Below the pieces are notes generated by a model that ran no database searches, was not told the DNA's origin, and saw nothing but the letters and a program-made list of their open reading frames with translations. A stretch of 64,000 nt of DNA from assembly GCA_011503125.2 (NCBI GenBank), contig WWBZ02000001.1, forward strand, positions 5,208,001-5,272,000. The letters run 5' to 3'. Numbering within the stretch: position 1 is the stretch's first letter; the number at the start of each line of letters is the position of its first letter. Below, piece by piece: positions 1-64,000 of the stretch. The position numbers and the translations under genes were made by a program. Source of the DNA: Botryosphaeria dothidea (Eukaryota; Ascomycota; Dothideomycetes; Botryosphaeriales; Botryosphaeriaceae).

Positions 1-1244
1 TTTTCAGACGCAGTATCTCGATCCATCTCTCCCCGATTCCGATGAGACGTCCTCAGATGATGAAGAGTTCTCGTACATGGTTGCAAAAGACATACCACGT
101 GTGGTTCCGAAACCGTCCAGACATCTGGAAACACTGTTGAAGTACGACAAGGCCAGAGCTCAGGTAGCGATGAATTTCTACCCGGCGGAGAAGAAAGAAG
201 CAGATGACTTCCTTTCGCTCGTTGAAGCCGTACAACCCTTGGCTGAGATGGCAAATCCACGACCTTGGCATGGCTCTTACCCATTGACATCTGGAAGTGA
301 CACGTGCACATGGTGTGCGAATGAGTATACCAGCAAGTATGTCTTTACTCTCTAGAGGTCTACCTTCGTAGCACTGATAAGATTGCAGTGCCGGCCGAAC
401 CAAGTTTAATGCTCATCTGCTTTCTTGCCATAAGACGCACTGGATGAAGCAGAAGAAAAAGTATTTCGATTACCCTCTCTGGAAGAAGCCCGAGACACCC
501 AGTATGGCGTGCTTAGATATACAACCTTCGTCTATTTCCGAAACTGTCGTTGCAGTGGTTCACAGGCTCAGGCAGTCTAGGTGCCAATGGAAAGGATGTC
601 AGCATGACTTCGTAGACAAGTCAGTCAACGCAATTGCACAACACATCAGTGGCCACAGCTACAATCGCGGAAAGCGCTGTCGGTGGAGTGGCTGTTATGT
701 CGGTGCTTCCGACCCGAGACAGTTGAGCGCTCACATGCTCAATACCCACGGTATTTTTTCCAACTACACACTTCCAGACCAAGCGTTCTATTGCCACCAG
801 TGCGCAGAATGGTCAGAGTCTTTATACTCATGGGACAAACACTGTGAAGAGCACGTGGAAAAATTGAAGGACCGTTTCTGTGGGAGAATCTGCCGGGAAC
901 ACGTAGTAATCTGTGCTGCGTTGTGTCCATTCTGTCTGGGGAAATCAGGCACACCATTAGAACGGTACCGTCAGTTCACAGGTAATGACGCCAAACTACA
1001 CATTCTCAAACATATCTCTGACCTCGGTAACCTTACCTATGAATGCCCATATCCTCTATGTAATGAGACAATTGCTGGACTAGAAGGGGCAAAAAAACAC
1101 ATTACAGATGTGCATGGCATTGGTATGGAGGTACACGAGAGACCTAAGATGGAGTATGTATCCAGAGAAGAAAGAAGGGACAACGATACAGTTAGTAATG
1201 CATTGAAGGAGACCGATAGTGATGAGGTGGTCCTGATTTTATGA
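1..1244 (+). CDS. C-terminal C2H2-rich part of a DUF3435-like tyrosine recombinase (putative Starship captain), 5' partial
   Basis: The reading frame is open from base 2, so the gene starts outside the window. An intron at about 337-388 (GTATGT...TTGCAG) joins the first exon to the exon ending with TGA at 1242-1244. The joined protein has a CTWC...HLLSCHKTH finger across the splice, then CQWKGCQ, CRWSGCY with H-x4-H, CHQCAEW with H-x3-H, CPFCLG and CPYPLC...H-x4-H. This order, with a FCG stretch before CPFCLG and CPYPLC, is what I know from the tails of fungal DUF3435 (FluG-like/Crypton-type) tyrosine recombinases, which mobilise Starship elements. The R-H-R-Y catalytic domain would lie upstream and cannot be seen, so this could instead be an orphan C2H2 protein. 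If it is a captain, the element extends rightwards through the window. Confidence 0.6.
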
Positions 1245-1673
1245 CTACTATATCTAGGACGGAAGTTTTATATGTTACGGTTTGAACCCTGAAGGTGCCT
1301 TGGATGATTCCTGCGGCAAGACCCTGGGTCGAGAGGACCCTAAAGCTCAACAAGAAAACCCTACAACTCGGTACCAGTAAAAGAGAACTTAGAAGGATAT
1401 ATAAAGACCTTGTCTTTACTCGAATCTCGCTTTCTTTTCTTTTTAGCTTAGTCTTCTCGTAGATAGCAATGCCACTGCATTTCCGCGAGTGCACCGGATG
1501 CAAGCCATCACATTATATTTATATAATTACCTTAAAGTGCTCTATTTTAGCTAGCCTATATTGTTTATATCCTCCTATTATTAACTAATAGTTATAATCT
1601 ATAGAACTAGAGGCCTTCTAAAAGGAAAGAGTGCACCATTAGCGCCATAGTAGACTTTTATAGACGGCTTAGA
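1245..1673. other. Gene-free, AT-rich stretch between the captain tail and the solo LTR
   Basis: No open frame with coding character. From about 1500 to 1660 the sequence is strongly AT-rich with TA-rich words, which could reflect RIP mutation. The last five bases (TTAGA, 1669-1673) are the left target-site duplication of the LTR. Confidence 0.5.
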
Positions 1674-2084
1674 TGTTACGGGTCGAGTTTACGGCGTAGC
1701 ACCCAGAGGTGGGGAGGAAGGTCGGAACAGGTGCAGCACTCGCTTAGAAAATATCCGTGCCGAGGATCACGGTCACGTGGCACGCTAAGCCCGTGATCCA
1801 GCAGAGGATCACGACTCCAGCCTAGTGATCCAAAAGGGGATCACCGTGGTCCCTAGTGATCCATCTCTATATATATATCACACTCTCTTATAGTAGATAG
1901 AACCTTCGTGGTCAATTCCAATCATTGCTTAACACCCATCTTGTTTACCTTCCCTGCCTGGCTACGGCTGCTATCCCTTTGCATAAGTGACATCCCGATA
2001 GCGGTAGCAAAACCCTTAGACGCTGCGCACCTCCCCGACACCTAAGTCCCTTAGGTTCCCTTGTTCCCAAGGCCCAGCGTAACA
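1674..2084. mobile_element. Solo LTR of an LTR retrotransposon (411 bp) with 5-bp target-site duplication
   Basis: The segment begins TGTTACG and ends CGTAACA, a perfect terminal inverted repeat with the TG...CA ends of retroviral-type LTRs. It is flanked on both sides by TTAGA (1669-1673 and 2085-2089), a perfect 5-bp target-site duplication. Inside there is a TATATATATATC run near 1867, suitable as a promoter, and several GGATCAC/GTGATCC words in both orientations between 1755 and 1862. No gag-pol or second LTR lies nearby, so this is a solo LTR left by LTR-LTR recombination. Copia versus Gypsy cannot be decided from the LTR. The intact duplication and ends suggest a fairly recent insertion. 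Confidence 0.88.
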
Positions 2085-2205
2085 TTAGATTAGTTTCGTA
2101 ACATATTCCTATAAGTTTTAAATATTTTATATATATTGTTTTTTCCCTTACAACTAAAATGAAATAGGTGATGAACTGCTTATCTGCTACATCGCTTCAT
2201 TCGTT

Positions 2206-2314
2206 CTCCGCTTGGTGTAGTTGGTTATCACGTTTGACTGTAATATATTGCGCTCGTCATTGAGCATTAGCAGATGTCATCAAAAGGTCCCTAGTTCGAT
2301 TCTGGGAGCGGAGA
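2206..2314 (+). tRNA. tRNA-Tyr(GTA) with a 35-nt intron
   Basis: A full cloverleaf can be drawn. The acceptor stem is CTCCGCT (2206-2212) with AGCGGAG (2307-2313) and discriminator A2314. The D-arm contains GTG/CAC. The anticodon stem is TTTGA (2233-2237) with TCAAA (2280-2284). The variable loop is AGGTC, and the T-arm CCTAG-TTCGATT-CTGGG. The anticodon loop C-T-GTA-A gives a tyrosine anticodon at 2240-2242. A 35-nt insertion (2244-2278) sits after position 37, the canonical site for nuclear tRNA introns, and eukaryotic tRNA-Tyr genes characteristically carry one. A B-box-like GTTCGATTC and a T-run from 2318 (Pol III terminator) agree. The gene lies 121 bp downstream of the solo LTR. Confidence 0.9.
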
Positions 2315-2790
2315 TTCTTTTTGGCTTTGTTTCGTCTTTTTAGAGTAACTACTATTACGAAGAGAACACAATGTAGATGAACGAAATGCCGGTGAAGATA
2401 TTCCTTCCAAGTATCTCCTACATTCTAGCAGATACTCGAACGGTGGTGAAAGTCGCTATAGCCTATTTGCGCACAGTAGGCTAACCGTCCACGTAATTTC
2501 ACGTCAGCTAGGAACGTCTCACACCTTAAATGACAAGACTCTAGTAATTTTCTTGCCTATTTTTGGCGTCTGGGCAACACTACATACAGTACCAGGACTT
2601 TCATGCGTGGCTTAGGCCTGCCACCGGAACTTGAAAGAGCTATGGTCTTATCACCTATTACAGCACTCTTCTAGATGAGTATCTATTGTGTAGCAGTGGA
2701 CAGAGAAGGAATGATACAGAGTAATTCAATTTCTAATTCTTACCAACCGCTAAGTAGAAACCCGAGACCAAAAATGTTCCTCAAGAAGAC
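2315..2790. other. Gene-free spacer
   Basis: After the Pol III T-run at 2318-2322 I see no open frame of note, repeat or RNA structure up to the stop of the BTB gene. Confidence 0.5.
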
Positions 2791-4172
2791 TCATGAGGCC
2801 ATTCGCGGCCGAAATACCAGAGTCTGAGGATTGGTCGTTTCTTGGATGACATCCAAATCCTCATCTGAATCCTCATCTGTTTCCCAACTTTCGTCCATGC
2901 TTGAACCTTTATCGCTACCATTTGCTTCGCCCTGTCCTGTCGCACCATTACTTATATCTGATGTGGCGTCTGTGGCCGAGGCGACATCTCCGTTCCATGG
3001 AAATTGGCCGTGGAACACTGGGGTAAAGTAGCCCAGACCTTGATCATCTTCGAAAAGAGGTTGGAGGATAGAGTTCAAAGCTTTCATGAGCCGTTCGGTC
3101 GCTCTCTTGACTGAGTCTGAGCGAAGGTCCACCGTTTCGTAAGTGCACCTATGGCCGGGCTCTTCGACCTTGCGTGGCCTAGTATGGATGTAATCCAACA
3201 ACTCCATCTGACGCATCGCCTTTTTTTGACTCAAGATTTGCCCACTACTCCGTGCATAGTAGAGCGGGCTGAATAGATCCCAGGATGTCTCGAGGCTTGG
3301 ATGAACAATGCTTCTGTAGTTGATGGCGAATTCTTGGCGCAGACAATGAGCGGCTACGATATAGCAGATGTCGTGTACGCCAAGTAGGACTCTCTCAATT
3401 CTCCTCGCAGCCGAGTAAATTAGGTCCTCAAACTTCTTCATCTCGCTCCTAACGAGAGTCTCGATGTGCTTAGGCAAATCTTCTCGCGGGGTACTTTTGA
3501 ACCACTGGCCTACGGCATGTGGCATTGCCCGAGCGAAAAGGTCCTCATCTCGGATGATATCTGAAATCTTGAGAATCAGGTATGGGTCGAGTTCGGGGCT
3601 TAGGCCGGTTTCGGAGATGAACAATCCTTTGACATCTTGGGTATATTGATAAACATAGATTGCTTCGCTGAGGCTCAAGATGAAGTCCTTTTCATTAGAA
3701 GGTAAACCAGTAGGGAGTTCACGGCAGGAAGGGCAGATGAGACTAAGTATAGTCTTTTGGAAATCGTACGCGTCCGTTAATTCCTCCGGGTCGTGGGTAT
3801 TTCCTCTGTGTAAACCGGAGGCGGCCTATAATCGCGTATCAGTGGTGAAGCGTTTCCTCAAATCAGGATGTTACTTACGAGCTCAGGAGAAATAACCCAG
3901 CAACACATTTGGTCTATGTTGATCCCGGGAACAAGAACGAATCGTTCTGGAAATTCGTTTTCTGGAAACATCGCGAAGTAGCCCGACCTAGCTCGCAACT
4001 CCTTTTTGCGTAGTCTGATGGTCTCGGAACCCAGAGATACGACCACATCACCTAATTCAAAGTTTATGGGTCTGCCTCTGGAGAAATCTTTTTGGCTCCT
4101 CAATCTTGTGGTTGGCGGATGGTACGTGGAGACGGTAGTGTCATCGAGATCGGCCGGACGCTTGGAGGCCAT
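2791..4172 (-). CDS. BTB/POZ-domain protein (442 aa)
   Basis: Exons are 4172-3879 and 3825-2791, with a 53-bp phase-0 intron 3826-3878 (GTAAGT...TTATAG). The start is the ATG at 4172 (MASKRPADLDD). Residues about 40-110 contain the fungal BTB signature GDVVVSLGSETIRLRKKEL followed by ARSGYF, that is, a strand/helix pair for dimerisation. The middle is helical, with RAMPHAVGQWF, and the C-terminus is acidic (DEDSDEDLDV). A C-x2-C (CPSC) follows the BTB core. Fungal BTB proteins of this type are mostly uncharacterised; some act as Cullin-3 adaptors or in transcription. A shortened relative of the C-terminal half lies at 15308-15748, so the family is duplicated within the window. Confidence 0.75.
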
Positions 4173-7652: not shown

Positions 7653-8488
7653 CTACAAGATCTCAATGTCCATGCAGCTTGTATATATCTCTTGCTCCCA
7701 TTGTTGCGGCTGCTCATTGAGTAGCGTCGGCCAGCTCCAAACCCAGTAGAGCGTGTAATTGGTACCGGCTTGCAAATCAGATGGAAGGCGTAATGCTATT
7801 CCACACCACAAATCTCTCCCCTCTCTCTCTGTATGCCTTCTTTGTGGCAACGCCTGACGCCTTACAGACTCCTCACTCTCATTAACCTGGTAGCATTCGC
7901 CGTCATCAAAAGGCGCCTCCGCCAAGAGGATACCCCTTCCATCTCCACCGGTGCCGTCTTTGTTCCAAACTCCGTGAATGCTCATGATCTTGTCATCTTG
8001 TGAGGATCTATTTGTCCCGTACACCCAAACAGTTCCGGCAGTCGGCTTTCGTGGTAAGCTTGCGCCGTCATCCCGGTACCTCAGCGTTACATGGCCATTC
8101 TCCTGATATCTAAGTAGGAGTTTGCTCGAAGCTGAAATTTGCAACATAGGGCTATAATCTGTGACATTAGGCTTTCTCTGGGTGGACTTACAGATATTGT
8201 CCGTAGCGAGAATCTCCGACCGCCCATTTGGAGGTATGAGGTTCTGCATCGCGAAGTCATTAAACGCTGGGTTTGGTCCAGGTGTGGAAAACGCAAGAAC
8301 ACGGGGGACTACTTTCATGAGCACTGAAAACGACTCAGTCTGGCTGGTATCTCACCGTTTCCTCGTATGTAGCCGGGATCGCCCGTGAGATTACCGTCTT
8401 CCGCGAGCTGGTATACATCGTCAACCCAGGAGTGACTAACAGATGCGTGCGCGAGGCAGAGAATGATAGCAAAGATACAGGGCAGCAT
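7653..8488 (-). CDS. Secreted protein of the DUF7492 type (about 260 aa)
   Basis: The ATG at 8488 opens a classical signal peptide (MLPCIFAIILCLAHASVS) followed by HSWVDDVYQLAEDG and GDPGYIRGN. A short intron starts at 8355 (GTGAGA). Acceptors at 8324 (32 bp) and 8312 (44 bp) both keep frame; the longer is more plausible. The second exon has PGPNPAFNDFAMQNLIPP, LLLRYQENGHVTL, VWVYGT, IHGVWNKDGTGGDGRG, DDGECYQVN, DLWCGIALRLPSDL, YTLYWVWSWPTL and IYTSCMDIEI, the conserved order I know for the DUF7492 family of secreted fungal proteins. A histidine directly after the probable cleavage site resembles the His-1 of LPMO-like copper proteins, but that link is speculation. A TATAAAC box lies at 8547-8553. 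Confidence 0.8.
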
Positions 8489-13201: not shown

Positions 13202-14857
13202 ATGACTTCCTCCCGCTCGGATATAATTCTTCGGTCTCCGACTACCCCCAACTCAAGTCTTGTACAGTTCAATTGCTGCTCGGCGGGCTGGTCAACAATC
13301 TATTCCGAACAGCTTGACGTGCTCGACTTCACGTATGTCCCGGAAACGGATCAAACGACCATGACAATCTCCATTGGCGGAAGGATATTCGACCTTGCCT
13401 GCTCTGCTGCTCTTTTCCCTTCCGCTGTTGCCGCAGTCGAGCTGTGGGCTCCCGGGCCAGAGATAACATCCTTATTCTCTAACCTTGCGGGGTTACTTCG
13501 CCGTCTCTGTGGAAAGCAGCTTCTGACTTTCAACCGAGAAAATGTCAGCCTCATGGCCTTCCTCCATATCTGGAACGTAAGGGCTGATCCATACGATGGA
13601 CACTTTGGTCTCGGCCTTCCTACTCCCGGAAAGCGCATTGACGAACTCTTCGAAGGCATCGAATACCACGACACCGATCTCTCATGGTACGAATGGAACC
13701 TTATCACTGTTATGGAGAAGATGTCGGACACACATTTCCTAGTCACTATGAACAATCAGTGTTTTGGTTGTTACATACCGGAGGGGGCTTTCGAATACGA
13801 GGGTTATAGCATCTTTCTTCAGGAAGTACGAAGCTGGAAAAGAATCTCGTTCGCCCGCAATGTCCCTCCCTCCATCTCGCGGCTCTCTGGTTTTGTGTAT
13901 TCACGATACAAGCCAACCAAGCTACAAGGGGTGCTCTACGAGTGGGTAGAGCCCAGTCATGCAATCCCATACTTGAGCAAGGTGCAGGTGGACGAAGTGC
14001 CTATTCAGCAGAGGAAGGCTTGGAGTGACCAGATCGAGCATGCTCTGGCGTTCCTACATGAGAGGTCTGCCAGCTTCACAAGGGAAGGATGTAAAGGGAA
14101 CATCACCGAGCGCATCACGATCACCACCAACATGGAGGCACATTTGAGGCTTATCCATTTTGGTGATGGTGAGCCGCATCGTGGATCTATAAGGTTTGTT
14201 CCTCATCGAAGGGCAGATTACCGCGCACTCGCCCAGATTCGCAAATTCCTTAGGGTTGACGCGGACGCCACTTGCATCGTAAACCCTCAAACTGTCGGAT
14301 TCCTCTGCATCCCGAGCGAGATTAGGAACAGGATCTACGAGCTGCTTCTGGTGTTGCCTGGCTATGTCAGATGGCACTGGGGCTACCGACATCAAATCGA
14401 TGTGGTTGCAGGCCTGGAAAGTGATAAGATCGCTGGCATCGGGCTCCTTGGCACCAACCGACAAGTGCGTCACGAGTCACTGTCATTCCTCGTCAGTCGA
14501 AACAACATAGCCGTTGATGCTGTCTGGCTCAAACCATTTTTGAGAACAAGAATGCCGGTCTGCCGCAGTTTGGAGCCAACAGTGGTGGGCTCGTACCTCC
14601 GAAGGGCTACTGTCACCATTACGTTGACTTGTAATGACCGGAGTACAAATGAGCAGCGTAAAGGTATCAAAGAGCTTGTAAAGTATTCTTCTTTATTAAG
14701 CCATGTCGATCTCCTGGTTTACAACAAGCACACATGGTATTGGGAGGACGATAATATTTGGGCTGACCTTAAGAAATTACCCGGCGTGCACCTGGAGGAG
14801 CATCTAGATACTAATTTCCTCGATCGAGTGCAACTATATCAATCTTTTGTGATCTGA
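13202..14857 (+). CDS. Pseudokinase-like protein with C-terminal 2EXR/F-box-like domain (551 aa)
   Basis: Single exon from ATG 13202. The N-terminal half has a degraded kinase plan: VLYEWVEPSHAIPYL at the hinge, then QIEHALAFLHERSASF, then GNITERITITTNMEA and LRLIHFGDG in place of the catalytic loop and DFG. The HRD aspartate is missing, so catalysis is unlikely. The last third starts FLCIPSEIRNRIYELLLVLP and continues with LLGTNRQVRHESLSFLVSRN, the LPPEIRNxIYxxxL...LLxTNRQIxxEA pattern of fungal 2EXR/F-box-like domains. The fusion could couple recognition to ubiquitin ligase recruitment, but that is inference. Other kinase-like genes lie at 5.6-6.3 kb and 40.0-41.3 kb. Confidence 0.65.
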   Translation: MTSSRSDIILRSPTTPNSSLVQFNCCSAGWSTIYSEQLDVLDFTYVPETDQTTMTISIGGRIFDLACSAALFPSAVAAVELWAPGPEITSLFSNLAGLLRRLCGKQLLTFNRENVSLMAFLHIWNVRADPYDGHFGLGLPTPGKRIDELFEGIEYHDTDLSWYEWNLITVMEKMSDTHFLVTMNNQCFGCYIPEGAFEYEGYSIFLQEVRSWKRISFARNVPPSISRLSGFVYSRYKPTKLQGVLYEWVEPSHAIPYLSKVQVDEVPIQQRKAWSDQIEHALAFLHERSASFTREGCKGNITERITITTNMEAHLRLIHFGDGEPHRGSIRFVPHRRADYRALAQIRKFLRVDADATCIVNPQTVGFLCIPSEIRNRIYELLLVLPGYVRWHWGYRHQIDVVAGLESDKIAGIGLLGTNRQVRHESLSFLVSRNNIAVDAVWLKPFLRTRMPVCRSLEPTVVGSYLRRATVTITLTCNDRSTNEQRKGIKELVKYSSLLSHVDLLVYNKHTWYWEDDNIWADLKKLPGVHLEEHLDTNFLDRVQLYQSFVI

Positions 14858-21151: not shown

Positions 21152-21446
21152 GTGGCTTCTGTATTTATGGCATATTTGTGGCCGAACTGTTGTTACCAGG
21201 TGATTTGATCGTGGTCATCGGTCTGAAAATGTGAGAATATGAAACATGTAAATGCCAAAGACCGACTTTGTACGTCAGCAGCAATGACGTCCAGGGAGCC
21301 CTGAAAGCATCTGAACGTGTGGCCTATATCGCAACATCCATTTCATGGAATGAATCCACATTCAGCTTATCGTTTAGCAAATAAAATCAATTAAATTTCT
21401 TGAACACTTCATCTATGATCTGAGTAGAGGAGCTTTTTCATGCCCT

Positions 21447-24400: not shown

Positions 24401-24560
24401 CGCGTAACAGCTTCGACTTCGCTGATCCGCCAATCATGGCAATAAGCTCCGGCGACTGCGTATCCGAGAGGGAAAGTGACGGAAAAGCGCTGGTCCATTC
24501 TTCCACACGCCAGCGGTCGCCTTCGAAGAGCGAGATAGCTATCCAAGGGTGGTCGGCCAT
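21447..24560 (-). CDS. RING-patatin-like phospholipase (PLP), 966 aa
   Basis: Exons are 24560-23528, 23470-22907, 22853-22466, 22408-22382 (27 bp) and 22335-21447; all four introns (57, 53, 57, 46 bp) fit phase. The N-terminal 340 residues hold a degraded P-loop (IAMIGGSAKSKLL) and the ILYNRVLAPLSSVVCYFASD segment typical of these proteins. A RING follows at about 424-470 (CLCC...CKHALCDAC...CCPICG). The patatin domain has the oxyanion motif DGGGVRG (about 493-499), the nucleophile elbow GTSAG (about 529-533, split by an intron) and the catalytic aspartate in FQDGG (about 686). All catalytic elements are intact, so acyl hydrolase activity on lipids is expected. PLPs of this type are a recurrent Starship cargo family. 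It is divergent from the DUF3723 gene, sharing a 0.27-kb promoter region. Confidence 0.9.
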
Positions 24561-39693: not shown

Positions 39694-40046
39694 TGCCCTC
39701 TGTCACAACTCTGGCAGGACATGATTAATGCATATCTTGGATAAATCGGTTGGCACGTTCTTGAAAGCCGCCATACAACAAGCCGCGTTCCGGGAGCCAG
39801 GAACTGTAATCCTGCAAGCTTCAATCACGCCGGCTGGCAGGGTTACATTCTACAAAGAGAAAACTATATCATTAGCCGATTTTTGGTGATATGGAAGCGC
39901 TAGGTCACTACGTCATCATGCAACGGTGTTACTCACGGTGGCAAGGGCGAAGCGGTTGCGGTAAATGTGCCCATTGGACTAATAAAAACAAACTAAAAAA
40001 AATAGTCCACCTTCATCACACTGCCTTTCTCCACAGTACAAAGGAT
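39694..40046. other. Gene-free spacer
   Basis: No gene or repeat recognised. Confidence 0.35.
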
Positions 40047-42285: not shown

Positions 42286-42354
42286 GCATCAATAAGTCAA
42301 GGTCATTAGTTGTATCATAGGTCATTAAATCGACACAGCTTAATATAAATTCCC

Positions 42355-43439
42355 CTAATGAAATTTTTGTTGACGAGATTCGAAAGCTTCAACGAGATCG
42401 GCATGGATATGCCTCTTGAGTACCCAGCTGTTATGCTCCGGACCATACCCCTCCCACTTGACCAGATAACTAACAACTCGCCTCTTTCCCCCATACCGCC
42501 GACGCGCACGACGCTTAAGTAGGCAGTCAACGTAGTACCGATTGGTCACAGGATCAACCGGGGGCGGCGGTGATTTCAGCGGAAGTATATTTGTTCCGGC
42601 TGCGGTGATCTCGTCGTGATCGATGACATCACTAAGATCAATAATGCGCTCCAGGTGGTTATCCCTTCCGCTTCGACGTCGAATACCGTGCAATGCAGTC
42701 CCTTCAGAAGAGAATGGAGAAGGAGAGGCTTCCAAGTGTCCTGTTGCCAACATCTGACGAGCGGAGAGGGGCTTGGTGTTGTTTTTGGTTCCAACTGTAA
42801 GAGTTGTTTGACGGGATGTTTCACCCACCATTCCAGAGGAATCTGGGGTTTCTAAAGAAAATATCAGTAATGCAAACCTCTAACCAACTACTCAAACACA
42901 GTCTCGGCTCTTCTTGTCATACCTTGAATAGGCCGAGTCCGTGGGATTGCCCCATTGGACGTCCCGGATACATCTCTCTATCTGATCATCTGATGTTGCG
43001 CCGCGATTTCATAAAAACCGTTGTGCATGATGCCTTCAGGTACGCTCAATCGGCTAACCGTGAAGGGCTCGACCAGAGGCTTTGGCACGGAGATCTCCGG
43101 AAGGACACACTGATTATCAAGATCTAGGCCGCTGGTATTCACCTGCGGAGGAAAAGGGTCCGTAAGAGCCATAGTTTGTTGCCTCCTCCAATGCGAATGT
43201 GGCAGAAGTGTAGAAGGAGAGGGAAGGGGGCTGCTGGACAAAGCACCATCCTCCAAGTCGAAAAGGTCCGAAACTGCTTCTCGGTCTCTATCATGATGTT
43301 GAGAAGGGATAGTTTCAGAGGTCACACGCCCTCGACCACGGAGAATTGCTCCGAGAGAAGGAAGGGAGGAGCCGTCCGTGGACGAGCAAACCTCTGGGTC
43401 AAAACGGGTAGAAGGAGTGCTGAGTTTCAAAAAAGCCAT
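42355..43439 (-). CDS. Chromodomain protein (315 aa)
   Basis: Exons are 43439-43044, 42977-42923 and 42851-42355; introns are 66 and 71 bp. The first intron removes an in-frame TAG while keeping the frame. The start is ATG 43439 (MAFLKLSTPSTRFDPE), downstream of a minus-strand TATA box. The C-terminal 60 residues are a chromodomain: YYVDCLLKRRARRRYGGKRR, then VVSYLVKWEGYGPEHNSWVL and a terminal helix (DLVEAFESRQQKF). The aromatic cage is partly kept (Y, W, with W/N-S-W). Chromodomains bind methylated histone H3; in fungi they occur in HP1-like proteins and in retroelement integrases. There is no integrase or reverse transcriptase here, so it is a stand-alone gene. Confidence 0.75.
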
Positions 43440-43522
43440 TTCTTCGATAAGTCGTGACTTAAATGAGGCGGCGGGTTGATAGAATGTGTCGAGGAAACGG
43501 TGAAATGCGAGAGCGCAGCCCA

Positions 43523-43530
43523 TATTTATA
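43523..43530 (-). promoter_or_regulatory. TATA box of the chromodomain gene
   Basis: TATAAATA on the minus strand, about 84 bp upstream of ATG 43439. Confidence 0.45.
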
Positions 43531-43932: not shown

Positions 43933-46137
43933 CTAGGTCTTAGTCTTATTAAACATTTCAAAAACAGATTGCATCATCCTTTCAAGCTGTACCTTCTGCT
44001 GGGGTGAAAAGGCCTCCTTAGTTGTGCTCACAGGATACTTTGTTCCGGAGGTATCAATGGAGCCATTGTCGGGAGGCTCAACCTTGCGAGCCTGTGACAG
44101 CTGGGAGAACATATCTGCTACAATCTCGTCATCATCATCGTTAATCAATTTTGTGTGATTTTGACCTCCAGAGAATGATGTAGAGTACGCGGAGTCTTCC
44201 AGGTCTGAGCCGTCTCCGAATAACCAGGGCGTTTGGTCCTTGTCGGAAGCACTCAGAGACGCCGCAGTGTCTGGGTGTATTCCCCTGGATCTGGCGTCTG
44301 CCAGTACCTGCTTGCGTATTTGTCTGATTGCTTCTCGCTTTCTCAGTGCTCCTTCCGCCATCTTCTTGCCGAAACAAGACTCGAATTCAGACTTAGTCCA
44401 TATGACAGGTCTGCCGTCTTCCATTCCATAAACGTACGAGGGGGGGGCCCTTCCTTTCTTCATCAGTCCTCCTTCAATCTTCATACTTGGTCCATCTCCT
44501 GTTTTGATATAGTCCCTACACGTGAAAAATTTAGATCTTGGGCCCTTTTGCCTTGAGCTGTCCGATTTGAAGCTTTCATTTTTGGACCACTCTTCGGCGA
44601 ACCCTCTTGGAAAGTCAGATCCGTTGCGCACGACCACGAAAGGCTTTGCTTCCGTCCCGGCGTTAAGGAATACTCGATACGAGCCCCGTCCGGCGTTTCT
44701 TACGAACATGACCTTCCCCTGAGGTGTAATACCCTCTGATAGGCGAGGATGGATCATTAACATTCCCTCATCCCAGATTTCATTCTCAGAGATGTTATTA
44801 GTTTGCATGGGGAGACCTGATGTGCCTCCCAGCTGTTGCTGGTTGGAAGACATAAATACTTGAGGTGGAGATGGTCCGCCAAAGCCTTGTTGGTTGGAAG
44901 GCATGAGACCTTGAGGTGGAGACTGGCTGCCAAAGCCTTTGAAATCTTGTGCAAACTTCTGTATCTTTTGTGCGGCACCTCGATGATCGAACGGCGGCTT
45001 ATCAGTATCCAAATGGTATTGTAGCAGAATCCGTCTGATTGGATACTGCTGCTGCCGCTTCACCTCGGGAGTGGGCTCCAATGCGGTAAAATTGGGAATT
45101 TTGACATCTTTGAGGCAAAAGATCTCCCAGTTCGCCACTGATTTCTGAGCAAATTCAACTAGACCGTTCTCGTCATACTTCCCAGAGGGAGCTTGGCATT
45201 CCCTCCAAAGCTCATCAAGTTCTTCCAGAGGTAAATTGTGATCATCCTCTTTGAATCCGTGCTTTTTATTCTCATCTCTGAGTTGCTGGTTCACGTTGTG
45301 TAGGTAAGCGAGCATTGGTTCCGCCGCTTTGTAATTACTTGCACCGAGGGCCCGGAAGTACTGCTCCACCGTTTGGTGAGAGTGTTGGATGATATCCTGT
45401 TGCCACACGGTTGGCTCCTGGAAGACGGCGATGATATCCGAGAAATCGGCGCTATCTCCATGTTGCTCAAGCACCTTTTTCATAGTGTCGTAGACTTCGG
45501 CTGTCAAGAGACGTTTGTAATTGATGCCTCGCTGCCGGAGGTCAATCATGAACATTTTATTACCTTCGAGGTATTTTTTAGCTATGGCGGGCTGTTGTTC
45601 GGATGGAGTTTGGACTATGTCTTTGTGAATCTCGCGATAGCTAGTGAACATATCCGTGATATACTTCCATGGAAACAAGAACTGATTGTGGTCCCTGTGA
45701 GCCAAATAGTTCGCCATTACCACGTTCTGATCTGTTGTAGTAAATTTATTTTGCACATCCTCGGTCATGCCTTGGCTCCACCATGTTTGCATAGCCTCGT
45801 AAGCAGTCTCGTAATGTATTAAGATCTCTCGTGGAGGCTTTTCAACCGCTGGTCTTTCTTGTCGAAGGGCGTTTAATTGACCGGTTGCTTTCAATTGGGC
45901 GGCCTGCATTCTCTCTTCCAGAGTAATGGGGTCATTGTCTTCCTTCTGCTCATCTGGGTTTATTTGTGCTGCAGATATTGTACCGTCCTCATTGGTTTGT
46001 GCAAACTCGGGCTTATCGACATTTCCGTCCCAGTTCGTGGCCGCGTGGGAAGGTGCTGCAGCTGGAAGTGTCTGCTGACCAGCAGCATGACTGGATCCTA
46101 AGACAAAGTTCGGCGGTGCGACAGACGGTGCGGCCAT
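43933..46137 (-). CDS. Large hypothetical protein (734 aa)
   Basis: Uninterrupted frame. The start ATG 46137 (MAAPSVAPPNFVLGSSHAAG) is chosen because a TATAAAA box lies 130 bp upstream; the frame also runs back to ATG 46302. The N-terminus is Ala/Pro/Gln-rich. A helical domain follows (YETAYEAMQTWWSQGMTEDV, QFLFPWKYITDMFTSYREIH, GINYKRLLTAEVYDTMKKVL). Then come two imperfect copies of a PPQ-x2-M-x-SNQQ repeat, and a C-terminal domain with VMFVRNAGRGSYRVFLNAGT and VYGMEDGRPVIWTKSEFESC. The tail is acidic (NDDDDEIVADMF). I recognise no family. The lack of introns over 2.2 kb is unusual for this window. Confidence 0.7.
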   Translation of the reverse strand: MAAPSVAPPNFVLGSSHAAGQQTLPAAAPSHAATNWDGNVDKPEFAQTNEDGTISAAQINPDEQKEDNDPITLEERMQAAQLKATGQLNALRQERPAVEKPPREILIHYETAYEAMQTWWSQGMTEDVQNKFTTTDQNVVMANYLAHRDHNQFLFPWKYITDMFTSYREIHKDIVQTPSEQQPAIAKKYLEGNKMFMIDLRQRGINYKRLLTAEVYDTMKKVLEQHGDSADFSDIIAVFQEPTVWQQDIIQHSHQTVEQYFRALGASNYKAAEPMLAYLHNVNQQLRDENKKHGFKEDDHNLPLEELDELWRECQAPSGKYDENGLVEFAQKSVANWEIFCLKDVKIPNFTALEPTPEVKRQQQYPIRRILLQYHLDTDKPPFDHRGAAQKIQKFAQDFKGFGSQSPPQGLMPSNQQGFGGPSPPQVFMSSNQQQLGGTSGLPMQTNNISENEIWDEGMLMIHPRLSEGITPQGKVMFVRNAGRGSYRVFLNAGTEAKPFVVVRNGSDFPRGFAEEWSKNESFKSDSSRQKGPRSKFFTCRDYIKTGDGPSMKIEGGLMKKGRAPPSYVYGMEDGRPVIWTKSEFESCFGKKMAEGALRKREAIRQIRKQVLADARSRGIHPDTAASLSASDKDQTPWLFGDGSDLEDSAYSTSFSGGQNHTKLINDDDDEIVADMFSQLSQARKVEPPDNGSIDTSGTKYPVSTTKEAFSPQQKVQLERMMQSVFEMFNKTKT

Positions 46138-46268
46138 GATAGTTAACGTCTGGTTTCTGGTTTCAAATTGATGTGGAAGGTAGTTTGATGGTAATTGCTT
46201 GAGTTCTTGCTTGATAATGATTTTGATTAGATTTGCTTGGTCGATGGGCGTAGCGAAGGAGATTGACG

Positions 46269-46275
46269 TTTTATA
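46269..46275 (-). promoter_or_regulatory. TATA box of the 46137 gene
   Basis: TATAAAA on the minus strand; part of a compact bidirectional promoter (46138-46469). Confidence 0.45.
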
Positions 46276-46441
46276 CCTGATGGCCAGATGAGATAGAGCC
46301 ATTTGGAATGCTTTGGTGCCCAATATTCAATTGTCGGATGCTGTCCGGCTGGATCCTGTATGTTATCTCCTGGTTAAGCCCGCTTGTCAGTGGGCGGGAA
46401 ACCGACCACCGACGTGTGGCCGCCCCACTCGGCGTTTAAAT

Positions 46442-51888: not shown

Positions 51889-51942
51889 TCTATATAGATT
51901 CCTGAATATCTAGCCGGTCTATAGAGCAACGATAGGCCTCAC

Positions 51943-54936: not shown

Positions 54937-56739
54937 ATGTCTACGGCAGAGCATCCCTCAGGACAATGGTCATGTGTCTCACCATGGGAGAACACACTCA
55001 TCAGCTGGAAATACGACCAGTATGACGTTGAGGTTGTTTTCAGGCACGGCGTCCAGGAGTTCTGCGTTGAATCATGCGTTTGGTATCACCCTTTCCTCCG
55101 ACATGCACTGGATACTGAGGACGAAATGATGGTAAAGGCACTAAAGGGTGTCGTTTTTCACCAGATTTTGCGAGATCTGGATCCAGAACTCTCGAGATTG
55201 CAAAAACCTGGCCAGATTTCCCAGCGCTTGTCATGGTTCTTCAACCATTTGGTCGATCCGAAAAACATTGCCAATTGGCGCGCGTTCCCTGACGACAACC
55301 TCATTAGGGATATACCCTACGACAATCCATCCATGCTACCTTTGTACAACTGGAACCACTTTCGGGTCTTAGAGGCCTTCAGAGATGGTTTAAAGGTGCA
55401 AGCTGAGGCTGGAACTATCGCCGAGACACTCACCAGGGGCGAAGTGTACGGGTGTATTCTTTTCAAGGACAAGCAATTGGCAGCGGATGGTGCCTATCAT
55501 TCGTACTTAGAAGCACTGGTTCGTTTGACGAAAGATGCAGAGAAGGGCAAATTTGATGAGCCTGATTCTGGCTATTATTTCGTTGTCCCACGACTTCGAG
55601 CATTCCTTCGCACCGATGATTACAGCACATCAGCTATGGGATTCCTATTCTCCTGGATAAACTCATGGACTAAAGCTCCGTGCTTAAGCCAGCTTTCTCC
55701 CAACGATATTCGGAACGGAGAGTCCGCGAACATTTACAGGTCCTGTTACCGCCTTTTTAGGGCTTTTGAACGCTTGGGTTATGCTGTCGTTGCAGAAGGC
55801 CGTGCTGAAGATGTCCTCGACATGGTTGGACTTACGCCCACGGGCCAAGCGTTTATCAGACTGCCAGACCTCGGAACGTTTGTGAAGACATTGGAACCCG
55901 CAGATAGTGGTCTTCGAGAACCCTCGTTTTCGTTCTTCAGAGGAAGAAACGACGATGCTGTTGCACTTGAGAGGATTTTGTCTTTCCTGGGTTCGGGCGG
56001 ATCCCACCAAAGTCCTCTCTCGCCCTTCTCCGTGGACAAAGGTCTAAGAAGCTTACGCCCGCAGCCACAAAATCATCTCGAAAAACTGCCACAAGAACTC
56101 CTCGATAGAATTCTGGATCTCCTACTGCTGAGACCGAGTGTCTATTGTACTAAACAAGGGTTCTACGCCTCGCCTCCACTTGAAACGGCTCTCTTTGAGA
56201 CTTCTAAGCGTATTCGACACTCTGCGCTACTCCGCTTCGTTAGGAATTCTTTTGTGGTCCAGCATAGCTGTCTCCAAGAATTCCTTGATCGCTGTGTTGG
56301 CATCAATAATCCGGCGGAGCTCACGCGGAGCAATACCGATTACTGGGCTTCAGTTCAGCATATCACTCTTCTTGTGACGATCGATGCGAGTTATGAATGG
56401 GATCTTGCAGATGAAGTCGATTCGTGGGAGGAAAGTGGACGTGCTCTATGTGAGCTTTTGAGAAAGAAAAAGGGGGATAAGGCGGACCAACAGACGAAGG
56501 TAACACTCGCTTTTCTTGACACCCCCGAGAGTTACCCGGAGGGATACCTGCGTCCATTCTTCCGCACGTGTCGGCATTTCAAACAATTTGCTTCTATTGA
56601 GATTCAACTATGTGGTTCCGAGGACTACGAGTATGGAGATGGGCGGCGCCTTGAGAAAGCGTATGAGTTTTTGGAGGAGGAAAGCAGAGAAAGGGCCGAG
56701 GGCGCAGATGCGGAAAGCGGCCAAGAGCGAGATGCTTGA
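54937..56739 (+). CDS. Large single-exon protein with F-box-like segment (600 aa)
   Basis: The start is ATG 54937 in good context (CCCACCATGTC); the frame is open further upstream but without ATG. The N-terminal part opens like a BTB-type fold (YDVEVVFRHGVQEFCVESCV, WYHPFLRHAL). A long helical middle follows (YRSCYRLFRAFERLGYAVVA). At about residues 400-420 an F-box/2EXR-like segment (LEKLPQELLDRILDLLLLRP) precedes LFETSKRIRHSALLRFVRNS. The tail is acidic and charged (EEESRERAEGADAESGQE). A BTB-plus-F-box-like layout could mean recruitment to a ubiquitin ligase; this is inference from short motifs. It resembles the 13202 gene in its F-box-like C-terminus. Confidence 0.6.
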   Translation: MSTAEHPSGQWSCVSPWENTLISWKYDQYDVEVVFRHGVQEFCVESCVWYHPFLRHALDTEDEMMVKALKGVVFHQILRDLDPELSRLQKPGQISQRLSWFFNHLVDPKNIANWRAFPDDNLIRDIPYDNPSMLPLYNWNHFRVLEAFRDGLKVQAEAGTIAETLTRGEVYGCILFKDKQLAADGAYHSYLEALVRLTKDAEKGKFDEPDSGYYFVVPRLRAFLRTDDYSTSAMGFLFSWINSWTKAPCLSQLSPNDIRNGESANIYRSCYRLFRAFERLGYAVVAEGRAEDVLDMVGLTPTGQAFIRLPDLGTFVKTLEPADSGLREPSFSFFRGRNDDAVALERILSFLGSGGSHQSPLSPFSVDKGLRSLRPQPQNHLEKLPQELLDRILDLLLLRPSVYCTKQGFYASPPLETALFETSKRIRHSALLRFVRNSFVVQHSCLQEFLDRCVGINNPAELTRSNTDYWASVQHITLLVTIDASYEWDLADEVDSWEESGRALCELLRKKKGDKADQQTKVTLAFLDTPESYPEGYLRPFFRTCRHFKQFASIEIQLCGSEDYEYGDGRRLEKAYEFLEEESRERAEGADAESGQERDA

Positions 56740-59482: not shown

Positions 59483-61375
59483 ATGGAGAGCCACTTTTCC
59501 AGCCATGAATCTTCCGATCCACTGCCCAAGCAACATCGTGCCTTGACAACACGTCCGGAAATGCAGTTTGTCATGTTCAGCCGGTTCTTCCTGGCGTGGC
59601 GCGAAGCCACGACAGGCCACCAGCAGTTCCTGGGTGACCTGTCGGCCGACCGCCATAGCAAGCCAATTTTTTTGACTCTCAGTCTGAGCGGCGAAGGGTG
59701 CACTTTATTGGTCTATCTCCACGTTCCAATCAAAGTCAATGCTACGTCCAAGGGATTGAGGAACTTCTACGTGGTCATGTCCGCCGAGTCCTTCCAGACG
59801 GAGGTTGGCTCCACGTCTCCGGCTGTATCTCGTTTCGTCTACGACGCCGGAGAACCCGTGGAGTTAGCCAAGGCCGGGGTGCAAACTGGTGCGGATCTTC
59901 TTCGGGCCCGTTTTGTGCTGAAGGAACCAAGCCCTGTTGTTATGCCTGTCCCAGAGGTAGTGAAGGACGTCAACGAACGGTCTCGAGGATTGCTACTAAG
60001 CCTCAAATCTCTATCCCGAGCTACGAGCTTTGACTTGTACATTCAGGACCGAGACATCATCAGCGAATCGATGAACGTTTTCCTCGAAATGCTCTGCACA
60101 GGCACGATGCGAAGCCCCGAAATCGACTGGAAGAGCACATTCAACGGACGCTGCTGGGGAACAAACAGCTGGGAATCGTATGGAGTCGGCGACGAGGAAC
60201 CCATGCCAAGATCTTGGAACCCGTTGGTTGAGGACTTACCGCCATCCTATGACAGGGTCGTACAGACCTCTACATCTCGAGCCCCTCCGATAATATTCGC
60301 AGAGCCTGGTACGCATCCAGATTTCTCAAAAGGTCCGGCGCAACATCCAGGCCCGGATTATTGCCCCGACACCGAGTCCGCGTCTTCGACGATTGACTTG
60401 GAGACTGATACCGAACCTGCTGATGTTGGAGCACTCGATGGAGCGCACAGACCCGCTGATGGGAAAGATTTTCATCAAAAGGTTCGCGATGGACAACACA
60501 TATCTCAGCAAATGACAAAGGAACAGCATCCCACGCAAGAGGAGGAGAAAGAGCGACGTGGAACTAGGGCCGACCTCGAATTGAATGGAAATCACCAGGA
60601 GGAAAGCGGGAAGCGTAAGGCTGGAGAAGCCCTTTCCGACGCCGAAACAATTATTATGGAACCCAGGGTTCGCAAGTGGAAGCGTAAGACTGATCGCAAG
60701 CGAGTCCCGCACCGTGATGCGGAAACACTAGAACGGAAATTCGACAGCGAAATCGACCACGTTATGGAGCATCTAGATCTTCCCCTTCCGCCTCAATCCG
60801 TATTCAAAGGAGGTCCTAACAGGAAATTACTTGATAAGGTTCAGTGGCCTCTGTTTCAAGATGCTGCTCTTTGGCTTAGTGCGGCATGGACCAGGAACCC
60901 CTCTGCTCTTAAGGATTACTGGCTGGAGTGCAACTTGCTCTCGCAGGCGATTCGATTGCGAGACCGATTCGAGTTTCGCAATATCAGACTTAAGTGTATG
61001 TATATGTTCGCTTACGAGCTGCGGAAGAGTGAGGATAAAGGCCTCTCTGTGTGCGCACTTCGAGACCGACCGCAGTGGATGGCCGAGTTTATCTTCCGCC
61101 GGCTGGGCCCAGGCCACGATACCCTCATCATGGATGATCTGTGCGCACTGTATCACTCGTCGTGTCATTGGATTCAAGTTGGAGGCGATGAGGGCCCCCA
61201 AAGCCCTGGCAATGAGAGGGAGTACGCTCGTCGTGAGCAGGCATTTCACCTGCAGATGGCGGCATGTATCTTTCTCGCGCTCATCTTGGACAACCGCAGG
61301 TGGCCGATGGACGACCAGCAGGCGTGGCAGAAAGCGACGCCCTCGGGCGCTCGAAACCGGGCATCTCAGGGCTAA
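59483..61375 (+). CDS. Large single-exon hypothetical protein with nuclear signal (630 aa)
   Basis: ATG 59483 to TAA 61373-61375. The N-terminal 190 residues look globular and beta-rich (PIFLTLSLSGEGCTLLVYLH, GLRNFYVVMSAESFQTEVGS). A second conserved-looking block follows (SFDLYIQDRDIISESMNVFL, GRCWGTNSWESYG, LPPSYDRVV). The middle is acidic and disordered, then comes a basic patch (RVRKWKRKTDRKRVPHRD) fit for nuclear import, and a helical C-terminal domain (DKVQWPLFQDAALWLSAAWT, AFHLQMAACIFLALILDN). I have seen this layout in fungal genomes only as an uncharacterised multicopy family; no function known. Confidence 0.65.
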   Translation: MESHFSSHESSDPLPKQHRALTTRPEMQFVMFSRFFLAWREATTGHQQFLGDLSADRHSKPIFLTLSLSGEGCTLLVYLHVPIKVNATSKGLRNFYVVMSAESFQTEVGSTSPAVSRFVYDAGEPVELAKAGVQTGADLLRARFVLKEPSPVVMPVPEVVKDVNERSRGLLLSLKSLSRATSFDLYIQDRDIISESMNVFLEMLCTGTMRSPEIDWKSTFNGRCWGTNSWESYGVGDEEPMPRSWNPLVEDLPPSYDRVVQTSTSRAPPIIFAEPGTHPDFSKGPAQHPGPDYCPDTESASSTIDLETDTEPADVGALDGAHRPADGKDFHQKVRDGQHISQQMTKEQHPTQEEEKERRGTRADLELNGNHQEESGKRKAGEALSDAETIIMEPRVRKWKRKTDRKRVPHRDAETLERKFDSEIDHVMEHLDLPLPPQSVFKGGPNRKLLDKVQWPLFQDAALWLSAAWTRNPSALKDYWLECNLLSQAIRLRDRFEFRNIRLKCMYMFAYELRKSEDKGLSVCALRDRPQWMAEFIFRRLGPGHDTLIMDDLCALYHSSCHWIQVGGDEGPQSPGNEREYARREQAFHLQMAACIFLALILDNRRWPMDDQQAWQKATPSGARNRASQG

Positions 61376-62422: not shown

Positions 62423-62475
62423 AATCGACAACAAAATCCCATCACTCCGAAAGGGTGTCGAAATTAACTGCCATA

Positions 62476-62925
62476 CTAGTGCCATTCCGCCTCATTACGA
62501 TATGCTGTAACTTCCGGTCCAGGCTCGGCCAGTGGAGCTACAATACTTTGGTAGAAGCTCGCCAATTCGGTGGATGACCATGCTCCAGTGGCGACCTTAA
62601 CGTGCGCTTGCGCGATGTTGTCGTTATTCGGGTCAGCGCCCATTGGAGTGACTTGGAGCATGAAGCCATTAATTTTGAGGAACATGTCGGCAGCAAGGAG
62701 AGCTACCCTCTTATTCCCGTCTTGGTACGCGTGATTCTTGACGATTCTTTCGGAGAGTATGGCAGCCAATACGATGAGATCTTCCTGTCCGTAATTCTTG
62801 TTGTTGATTGGTGATGAAACAGCAGAGTCTAGGAGCCCGAGTTGAGTTGGCTCAGTGGCAAATAGCCGAGATATGTAAAGTCGTCTGACTTGCCGAGAGG
62901 TGAGGAAATGATATCGTAGGGCCAT
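62476..62925 (-). CDS. Fic/Doc-family protein (149 aa), death-on-curing type
   Basis: Single exon from ATG 62925 (MALRYHFLTSRQVRRLYISR). Residues 65-73 read HAYQDGNKR, the catalytic Fic/Doc signature HxFx(D/N)xNKR with His, Asp/Asn and Arg intact. The flanking helices IVLAAILSERIVKN and VALLAADMFLKINGF fit the short Doc/death-on-curing architecture (about 125-150 aa), not the long eukaryotic FICD type. Such proteins transfer AMP or phosphate to target proteins; in bacteria, Doc is the toxin of Phd-Doc modules. No inhibitory (S/T)xxxE(G/N) helix is evident in the protein. The absence of introns and the bacterial-type layout suggest horizontal origin. The target in a fungus is unknown. Confidence 0.85.
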   Translation of the reverse strand: MALRYHFLTSRQVRRLYISRLFATEPTQLGLLDSAVSSPINNKNYGQEDLIVLAAILSERIVKNHAYQDGNKRVALLAADMFLKINGFMLQVTPMGADPNNDNIAQAHVKVATGAWSSTELASFYQSIVAPLAEPGPEVTAYRNEAEWH

Positions 62926-63359
62926 CTTTGACGCCTTGAAATACTGTTAAGCACATGCAATAAAGCAGGCTCAGCGTTGGCTTTTATTCATCCTCATATC
63001 TAGGCTACACGTCCAGTTGAAGGGCGTGATGCTCGGGAGCAGCTGCTTGATACGCTGTCGTGGTGATGCATGAGTTGGCTACACAATGACGGACATATGC
63101 GCCAGAAGCAAGTTTGAGGTAATTACATTTCTATTGGCTATATACATATGCGAAAGAACAAATTGAGCTCGCCGTACCACCAATCTATTGCAGATCATAG
63201 ACTATCAACCCTTGGTTGATCTGCGTGATGATGACAGTGCAGGTTGCTTATGCGTGATGTACGTCGATCTACCGTCCGTCTCAGCCTCCGTTAGCGTATT
63301 AGCTCCAACCGTCAAGGGCAGCGTCTTCGTAATGCTTCGCTTACTTAAGAGACCGCTAC
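62926..63359. other. Gene-free spacer
   Basis: No gene recognised. Confidence 0.35.
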
Positions 63360-63992
63360 TCAGCACTCGATGTGAGCTTCATTGCGGCTTAAATCACGCA
63401 CTGCTGATGTTTGTGTTGAAGTGGTACCCATCTCGGTGTCCTCGTAATTTTCGTCGTCGCTGCTGTCTTCGCTGGCACTATCCAGCTCTGAAACGGACCA
63501 CTCGGTGAACTGCCCAACATGCGACGTATAAGGGGGAGGATGAGAAGACTGATTGTAGAAGATTGGATAGTAAATCACCTGCGGCTCAGCGAAGCGGCGT
63601 TCAGAGACAGGGTCAATATAGGAAGACGGATATCTGGGCGTTGACTGCCGGGAGAATGCCCAGGAGGGAAGCTTTGCCAGCCGCTCGCCGCACTTTCGCA
63701 AGAATAATTTGCAACGGGAACAGCTCTCTCGGGCAGCATCAGCAACACTAAAATCATTGAGTGGGATAATAATAAGGCACATGTTTGCAAGATGATAGTG
63801 CTTTGCATCCGCTTTCACCAGTCTCCTAGCTAGTCTCCTAGCCCTTATACAGGCAAATAAGGATAAGGCTGGTGTCCAGCAAACATCCCACCGGATTTGC
63901 GCACTCATCAAGGATGCGGACATATGTCTGCTGGGTGGTTCACCGACATTTGCCCGCGAAGTGAGGATGGGCGTAGTGCTGCCGGGCGACAT
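63360..63992 (-). CDS. Hypothetical protein, probably 5' incomplete
   Basis: The frame ends at 63360 and stays open to the right edge. The convincing part is the last ~120 residues: ARESCSRCKLFLRKCGERLA (a C-x2-C-x5-C cluster), RQSTPRYPSSYIDPVSERRF, PQVIYYPIFYNQSSHPPPYT and an acidic tail (SASEDSSDDENYEDTEMGTT). A GATTTTAG acceptor near 63752 suggests that the segment upstream is intron, so the true start is probably in another exon, perhaps beyond the window. No family recognised. Confidence 0.4.
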   Translation of the reverse strand: MSPGSTTPILTSRANVGEPPSRHMSASLMSAQIRWDVCWTPALSLFACIRARRLARRLVKADAKHYHLANMCLIIIPLNDFSVADAARESCSRCKLFLRKCGERLAKLPSWAFSRQSTPRYPSSYIDPVSERRFAEPQVIYYPIFYNQSSHPPPYTSHVGQFTEWSVSELDSASEDSSDDENYEDTEMGTTSTQTSAVRDLSRNEAHIEC

Positions 63993-64000
63993 CAACCCCC

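What the first reader, a model, noticed from the sequence alone, without database searches (positions are those of the whole stretch)
1..64000. The window looks like the interior of a Starship giant transposon
Seen: a DUF3435-like C2H2 tail at the left edge pointing inward, a DUF3723 gene, a RING-patatin gene and a ferric reductase within 33 kb, plus a possible NLR remnant and many unplaced hypotheticals. Known: Starships of Pezizomycotina carry a DUF3435 tyrosine recombinase as first gene and are enriched in exactly DUF3723, FRE, PLP and NLR genes. Inference: most genes here are cargo, including undescribed families (734-aa, 630-aa, W-x3-Y coiled-coil, Fic/Doc). Neither end is visible.
Basis: partly seen in the sequence, partly recalled or inferred. 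Interest (0 to 1): 0.95.

Follow-up and report, generated by a model that had tools for sequence, protein, structure and literature searches.

The report
Giant transposon inserted in tRNA gene
The window is the inside of a 67.5-kilobase fungal 'Starship' giant transposon that has cut a tyrosine tRNA gene in two and carries its own tyrosine tRNA gene, one base different at exactly the place where it cuts, which suggests a giant transposon that breaks a gene and brings its own replacement.

Summary
A DUF3435 tyrosine recombinase (captain) with its catalytic residues lies across the left window edge and points inward. Extending the contig gave both ends. An 11-bp direct repeat, GTTGGTTTATC, sits at window -2324..-2314 and 65192..65202, with short imperfect inverted repeats just inside it. 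The element unit is 67,516 bp, so the whole window is interior. Joining the flanks at the repeat rebuilds an intact intron-containing tRNA-Tyr(GTA) gene; neither junction alone does. The Starship sits in the D-arm of a tRNA-Tyr gene and splits it.

Its exons match the host copies except for one T missing inside the 11-bp target word. My best reading is a tRNA-Tyr-targeting Starship that brings a replacement tRNA whose target word is altered. Boundaries and insertion site are close to proven; target specificity, rescue and self-immunity are inferred from one insertion. My searches of the held open-access library showed no report of a Starship in a tRNA gene; two key Starship papers are not held.

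The parts
1..1244 (+). 3' part of the captain (DUF3435 tyrosine recombinase, 860-aa spliced model, 6 exons, C-terminal C2H2 region); the gene starts at -1598, 715 bp from the left direct repeat. Outside the window on this side: direct repeat GTTGGTTTATC at -2324..-2314 (L012:7676-7686; position 0 is the last base before the window), preceded by the 5' half of the split tRNA-Tyr (TCTCCGCTTGGTGTA), and the left inverted repeat region from -2313 (core TTGTTCGCC)
   Evidence: captain; left end:
1273..1515 (.). 243-bp dispersed repeat (many copies in this genome)
1673..2082 (.). 410-bp LTR-like repeat; some copies elsewhere come in pairs about 6.4 kb apart
2205..2315 (+). intact tRNA-Tyr(GTA) gene carried by the element, own intron, T5 run just downstream; one T missing in the D-loop within the target word
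   Evidence: (RF00005 50.2 bits)
2791..4172 (-). hypothetical cargo gene, 442 aa
   Evidence: no Pfam match
7653..8488 (-). DUF7492 gene
   Evidence: (E 2.1e-71)
13202..14857 (+). 551-aa hypothetical, weakly similar to the 600-aa protein at 54937
21409..24560 (-). RING-patatin gene (933-aa model)
24826..28380 (+). DUF3723 gene (1136-aa model with coiled-coil C-terminus)
31811..33277 (+). ferric reductase ORF
34324..35775 (+). maltose/hexapeptide acetyltransferase-like ORF
40016..41309 (-). protein kinase-like gene, possibly incomplete
42355..43523 (-). chromodomain gene
43933..46302 (-). 789-aa (734-aa from inner Met) cargo protein without Pfam match
54937..56739 (+). 600-aa cargo protein; DNA of 54358-56704 matches C6:664506-666957 (70%)
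59483..61375 (+). 630-aa cargo protein without Pfam match
62476..62925 (-). Fic/DOC gene; DNA match on C6 (66%)
63360..64000 (.). last 0.6 kb of element inside the window (140-aa ORF on minus strand, no Pfam match). Outside the window on this side: right inverted repeat region just before 65192, direct repeat GTTGGTTTATC at 65192..65202 (L013:1192-1202), then the remaining 3' part of the split tRNA-Tyr gene (65203-65294)

Best explanation
The window is roughly positions 2.3 kb to 66.3 kb of a 67.5-kb Starship. SHOWN: the captain is the first gene and points inward; the ends are an 11-bp direct repeat plus imperfect inverted repeats; the insertion splits a host tRNA-Tyr(GTA) gene in its D-arm; the element carries a complete, differently introned tRNA-Tyr(GTA) gene next to the captain, whose only exon difference from host copies is one T missing inside the 11-bp repeat word. 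INFERRED: the captain recognises the tRNA-Tyr D-arm, an address identical in every tRNA-Tyr copy found elsewhere in this genome, and recombines a circular element form into it, leaving the 11-bp repeat. Each insertion kills one tRNA-Tyr gene, and the carried copy replaces the lost dose. Because its target word is one base short, it is a poor substrate for the captain, so the element does not recombine with itself. The rest is accessory cargo (DUF3723, ferric reductase, patatin, Fic and families without Pfam match).
For: Captain; R197, R355/R356, H377 and Y386 are identical in the Bipolaris maydis relative. Ends. Flanks joined give ARAGORN tRNA-Tyr(gta) with a 42-nt intron; left junction, right junction and the decayed copy upstream give none. 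Of 10,000 joins of the left flank to positions 60000-69999, 38 gave a tRNA call, all at 65157-65247; the call was Tyr(gta) at 65157 and 65202-65206 only. Carried tRNA: ARAGORN and Rfam tRNA 50.2 bits, against 47.7-50.4 for the three host genes that cmscan listed. Exons: the 4 host genes and the rebuilt one are identical over 74 nt; the carried one lacks one T. With 5 other tRNA-Tyr loci in 51.7 Mb, a tRNA-Tyr falls in a 67.5-kb stretch by chance with P 0.0065. It is the only tRNA that ARAGORN calls in 164 kb. The genome search finds no second copy of either end. Third-position GC and codon usage differ from both flanks.
Against: One insertion only, so specificity for tRNA-Tyr is not shown. A random single exon difference would fall in the 11-bp word with P 0.15, so the missing T is weak evidence for immunity; the shorter form may simply be the ancestral or donor sequence (no other fungal genome was available to check). 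The host keeps 4 intact tRNA-Tyr genes, so rescue need not matter. Expression and recombination were not measured. The 11-bp repeat alone is not significant: one search gave 13 direct matches of 11 bases or more, where 13 to 18 are expected by chance; the boundary call rests on the tRNA. The inverted repeats are short and imperfect. The five other DUF3435 loci show no tRNA in the 5-6 kb fetched, so tRNA targeting is not seen there.
Confidence: 0.72

Rival explanations
1. It is a Starship with these ends, but the tRNA site is an accident and the carried tRNA-Tyr is a passenger picked up by chance; the missing T is drift or a donor-species difference.
For: Single insertion; the probability that one exon change falls in the target word is 0.15; no tRNA at the five other DUF3435 loci in the stretches fetched; four other intact tRNA-Tyr genes exist.
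Against: Chance presence of a tRNA-Tyr in the element has P about 0.0065, and it sits beside the captain; its tRNA model score is within the range of the host genes listed, so it has not visibly decayed.
Confidence: 0.25
2. A fossil Starship: correct ends and captain, but no longer mobile, with repeats inserted and cargo eroding.
For: A dispersed repeat and an LTR-like repeat lie just behind the captain; the kinase gene looks incomplete; no second copy of either end was found.
Against: The captain model is open over 860 aa with the catalytic residues present; repeats and tRNA halves are exact; no RIP signature inside the element, whereas most of -22 to -6 kb of the left flank has one.
Confidence: 0.2
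3. No element: an accessory region joined to core sequence by a rearrangement or misassembly between tRNA-Tyr copies.
For: tRNA-Tyr genes are dispersed and identical in exons; a decayed partial tRNA-Tyr lies 1 kb left of the site.
Against: Exchange between two tRNA genes would leave chimeric full-length genes, not two halves overlapping by an 11-bp word, with inverted repeats inside and a captain 0.7 kb from the edge.
Confidence: 0.03

Closest known systems
Starships that insert into 5S rDNA (Osiris, Enterprise family, in A. fumigatus; Voyager, whose 12-bp site is quoted in a passage of PMC10128009)
   Same: DUF3435 captain at the 5' end, direct repeat longer than 6 bp, insertion fragments a short conserved RNA gene (PMC12153272: section 6 and passages seen)
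   Different: Target is tRNA-Tyr, not 5S rDNA (Rfam at gathering threshold gave no match in L012, window or L013); the element carries a complete gene of the target type. No such carried copy is mentioned in the passages I saw.
Sanctuary and Horizon Starships (Bipolaris, Pyrenophora)
   Same: [quoted passage not shown] PMC9594970 passages)
   Different: Repeats ATWHCT/ATACCT and TTTAC (PMC12257634 passages); no tRNA target mentioned in what I saw
Prokaryotic tRNA-targeting integrative elements (genomic islands, archaeal integrative elements)
   Same: Tyrosine recombinase uses a tRNA gene as the address
   Different: There the integration restores an intact tRNA gene at the junction (PMC8371274 passages; PMC4383910 abstract start in a listing). 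Here both halves stay broken and a separate full copy with its own intron is carried. No claim of homology.

Membership tests
Starship | DUF3435 tyrosine recombinase as first gene at the 5' edge, pointing inward | tested here: met
   start codon 715 bp inside the left repeat
Starship | Flanking short direct repeats from a target site | tested here: met
   11-bp repeat; flanks joined rebuild a tRNA-Tyr gene
Starship | Terminal inverted repeats, often asymmetric (frequent, not universal) | tested here: met
   short and imperfect
Starship | Accessory gene families DUF3723, FRE, PLP, NLR (frequent, not universal) | tested here: met
   three of four found; NLR not found in what was scanned
Starship | Size about 15 to 700 kb | tested here: met
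   67,516-bp unit; range quoted from PMC12134995 passages
Starship | Presence/absence among strains or the same element at two sites | not testable with these tools
   no relatives of this genome held; no second copy found in this genome
Named captain family (Voyager, Enterprise, Phoenix and others) | Captain clusters with a family's reference captains | not tested
   reference captains not available; nearest proteins found are a Bipolaris maydis hypothetical (33% over 63% of the 860-aa query) and one unnamed protein
Prokaryotic-type tRNA-integrating island | Integration restores the split tRNA gene at the junction | tested here: not met
   neither junction gives a tRNA call

The most novel reading that the evidence does not exclude
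A eukaryotic giant transposon whose captain is specific for the tRNA-Tyr D-arm and which carries a recoded, target-resistant tRNA-Tyr beside the captain. Every insertion breaks one gene of an essential tRNA family and supplies one that the recombinase cannot hit: a built-in combination of self-immunity and host compensation.
Probability: 0.35. Interest if true: 0.88.

Novelty: new variant of a known kind. Interest (0 to 1): 0.76.

Why it matters
How Starships choose sites, and how they limit the harm they do, is largely open. 5S rDNA is the only RNA gene named as a Starship target in the passages I saw. A Starship exactly mapped in a tRNA gene extends that to a second conserved Pol III gene and recalls the tRNA addresses of prokaryotic integrases, reached by another route: replacement copy instead of junction repair. 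The carried tRNA with an altered target word makes two ideas directly testable, self-immunity and host compensation. It also gives a simple way to find ends in single genomes: join flanks and ask whether an RNA gene reappears.

Tried and rejected
Rejected: the 152-bp dispersed repeat at 67465-67616 as a 5S rDNA target; it is a solo-LTR-like repeat (TG...CA ends, ATCAT on both sides, read by eye) with no Rfam match. Rejected: the longest direct match, a 14-mer at -4400 and 69412, as the direct repeat; about 0.3 such matches are expected by chance, and the left copy lies within the host repeat that ends at -4211. Rejected: -4211 itself as the element edge. Considered: weak Pfam hits of coiled-coil ORFs; all below cut-off. 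PDB sequence search with the captain's first 433 aa: nothing at E 1. Search of viral contigs for a fungal tRNA-Tyr pattern: no match. Structure prediction was not run: too few relatives of the captain.

Limits. Gene models come from my own simple splice-aware predictor, not from transcripts; element and host models were made with differently trained codon tables, which may inflate the codon-usage difference (models under 150 aa were dropped). ARAGORN without introns and Rfam at gathering threshold both missed the carried tRNA, so the negative result is weak. An own-genome DNA search of window 20001-24000 was not done, and 24001-44000 came back unscored, so cargo paralogs there are unknown. Searches scored only 39-40 of 205-753 candidates. 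cmscan at E 0.01 listed 4 of the 6 tRNA loci given: L024 is the split gene, but L025 was also missed although ARAGORN calls it. The tRNA family search of the genome scored only 63 of 1497 candidates, so no tRNA census is claimed. One search (131 papers, 15 listed) was not followed up.
Full report
The window lies at C1:5208001-5272000 of a 51.7-Mb, 78-contig genome. A CDC14 gene in the right flank is 92% identical to that of Diplodia intermedia, with Phyllosticta (81%), Saccharata (79%) and Aplosporella (77%) next. Diplodia is in the Botryosphaeriaceae, so the host is most likely in or near that family; the species was not identified. Positions outside the window are given on the same scale: 0 is the last base before it, and numbers above 64000 lie to its right.

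Captain. A genome search with the DUF3435 family gave 19 matches at six loci; one locus is C1:5206989-5207995, plus strand, ending five bases short of the window. A splice-aware model, with its last exon read to the stop of its open frame, runs from -1598 to 1244 and gives 860 aa. PF11917 matches residues 162-462 (132.7 bits, E 2.3e-38). The only named relative found is a Bipolaris maydis hypothetical protein, 33% identical over 63% of the query; an alignment search added one unnamed protein. Both searches scored only the roughly 8000 candidates sharing most words. Against the Bipolaris protein the stretches TGIRPGE, YCFRRG, MGH and FQHYIS keep R197, R355/R356, H377 and Y386; that these are the catalytic residues is from general knowledge of tyrosine recombinases.

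Finding the ends. I fetched 40 kb on the left and 60 kb on the right. Most of the left flank from -22 to -6 kb carries strong RIP signatures; the element does not. Host repeats end at -4211. On the right are host genes: NDUFB7 at about 68.5-69.4 kb (Pfam E 4.1e-30) and CDC14 at 70.4-72.5 kb. Comparing the stretch upstream of the captain with the right side gave, among chance matches, GTTGGTTTATC at -2324 and 65192. By itself this is not significant: 13 direct matches of 11 bases or more were found where 13 to 18 are expected. Three facts make it the boundary. First, the flanks joined at this word give an ARAGORN tRNA-Tyr(gta) with a 42-nt intron in the anticodon loop, while left junction, right junction and a decayed copy upstream give nothing. 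As control, the left flank was joined to each of 10,000 positions from 60000 to 69999: 38 joins gave a tRNA call across the join, all between 65157 and 65247, with Tyr(gta) at 65157 and 65202-65206 only. Second, just inside the repeats are imperfect inverted repeats (TTGTTCGCC core; 4 of 1000 shuffles score as high; 13 shared 9-mers against a control mean of 1.44, reached by 0.5% of 4000 controls). Third, the captain starts 715 bp inside the left repeat. In the 164-kb region the 11-mer occurs only at these two places. The element unit is 67,516 bp. Genome searches with the two ends alone, one candidate each, find only themselves.

The carried tRNA. Searching the genome with the rebuilt tRNA-Tyr gave six places: the split gene; four genes on C1 (two), C18 and C29; and one at window 2205-2315, inside the element. 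ARAGORN with introns calls the last five as tRNA-Tyr(gta). The carried gene scores 50.2 bits with the Rfam tRNA model, against 47.7 to 50.4 for the three host genes that cmscan listed (a fourth, L025, was not listed). Over 74 exon bases the four host genes and the rebuilt gene are identical; the carried gene lacks one T, turning GTTGGTTTATC into GTTGGTTATC. Its intron differs, it has a T5 run just downstream, and it lacks the hairpin-like sequence that I read by eye upstream of the host genes. It follows the captain, with a dispersed repeat and an LTR-like repeat between them, so the two were probably closer neighbours before those insertions. It is the only tRNA that ARAGORN calls in the whole 164 kb. 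With five other tRNA-Tyr loci in the genome, chance presence in a 67.5-kb stretch has P about 0.0065; that a single exon change falls in the target word has P about 0.15. So the presence of the gene is hard to put down to chance; the place of the missing T is only suggestive.

Cargo. My models give 33 genes of 79 aa or more inside the element, 23 of them of 200 aa or more. Recognisable: DUF7492, DUF3723, RING-patatin, ferric reductase, hexapeptide acetyltransferase, kinase-like, chromodomain and Fic. No NLR domain was found in the ORFs and models scanned. Mean codon score against host usage is -0.043 for 24 element models, 0.081 for 8 left and 0.079 for 14 right host models; third-position GC is 0.53, 0.68 and 0.65 (Mann-Whitney p 7.6e-8 against all host models; models under 150 aa dropped). 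The two sets were predicted with differently trained tables, which may widen the gap. All eight own-genome DNA matches of window 44-64 kb lie on contig C6, a 1.05-Mb contig that holds three of the six DUF3435 loci.

Mechanism. Shown: ends, insertion point, split tRNA, carried tRNA, one-base difference. Inferred: captain-catalysed site-specific insertion, replacement of the lost tRNA dose, and a target word that the captain no longer uses. Against specificity: one insertion, and the five other DUF3435 loci show no tRNA in the 5-6 kb fetched (a split tRNA would be missed by both programs).

Literature. In the held library, A. fumigatus Starships are described with direct repeats of 2-12 bp in 19 of 20 elements, inverted repeats in 18 of 20, and repeats longer than 6 bp generally tied to 5S rDNA, with Tardis as an exception (PMC12153272, section 6 and passages). 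Captain position and accessory genes match PMC12506042 (section 8). Searches for Starship with captain and tRNA terms gave no paper describing a tRNA gene target: one search listed two papers without 'tRNA gene', none, and one, in which the single mention is a tRNA-modifying enzyme gene (passage seen). The word tRNA is absent from the main text of five Starship papers in which I looked for it. The 2022 and 2024 papers that I recall as defining Starships and their target sites are not held, so a report there cannot be excluded. Prokaryotic tRNA-targeting integrases restore the tRNA at the junction (PMC8371274 passages); this element does not.

Verdict. The Starship call is correct and now has exact ends; it is a new member of a known kind by its captain and cargo, and a new variant by its tRNA-Tyr site and carried tRNA-Tyr.

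Noticed in passing
-3363 to -3290 (L012:6637-6710): Decayed copy of the tRNA-Tyr leader and 5' half about 1 kb left of the split gene; local alignment score 36 against a maximum of 23 in 300 shuffles. It may mark a tandem tRNA pair or an older event.
   Followed up: partly
C6 (1.05 Mb contig); L019, L020, L021: Three of the six DUF3435 loci and all eight DNA matches of window 44-64 kb lie on this small contig, perhaps an accessory chromosome.
   Followed up: no
59268-62925 and C6:73926-75778: Three pieces match the same C6 stretch in order: one just 5' of the 630-aa ORF, one in the spacer and one in the Fic ORF. The 630-aa coding part itself is not matched at DNA level, so the two genes may or may not travel as a pair.
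   Followed up: no
66451-68045 (L013:2451-4045): Gene remnant outside the element (218-aa part without Pfam match; looks kinase-like by eye), interrupted by a 152-bp solo-LTR-like repeat with ATCAT on both sides.
   Followed up: partly
13202-14857 and 54937-56739: Two cargo proteins of 551 and 600 aa are weakly similar to each other (BLASTP E 0.001, 21%): possibly one diverged cargo family.
   Followed up: partly
L025, L026, L027, L029: Host tRNA-Tyr genes share a hairpin-like sequence (such as GGCGGTCCACCGCC) shortly upstream, absent before the carried tRNA (read by eye).
   Followed up: no
-14194 to -11792 (L011:5806-8208): 801-aa reverse transcriptase ORF still open inside the largely RIP-marked left flank.
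   Followed up: no
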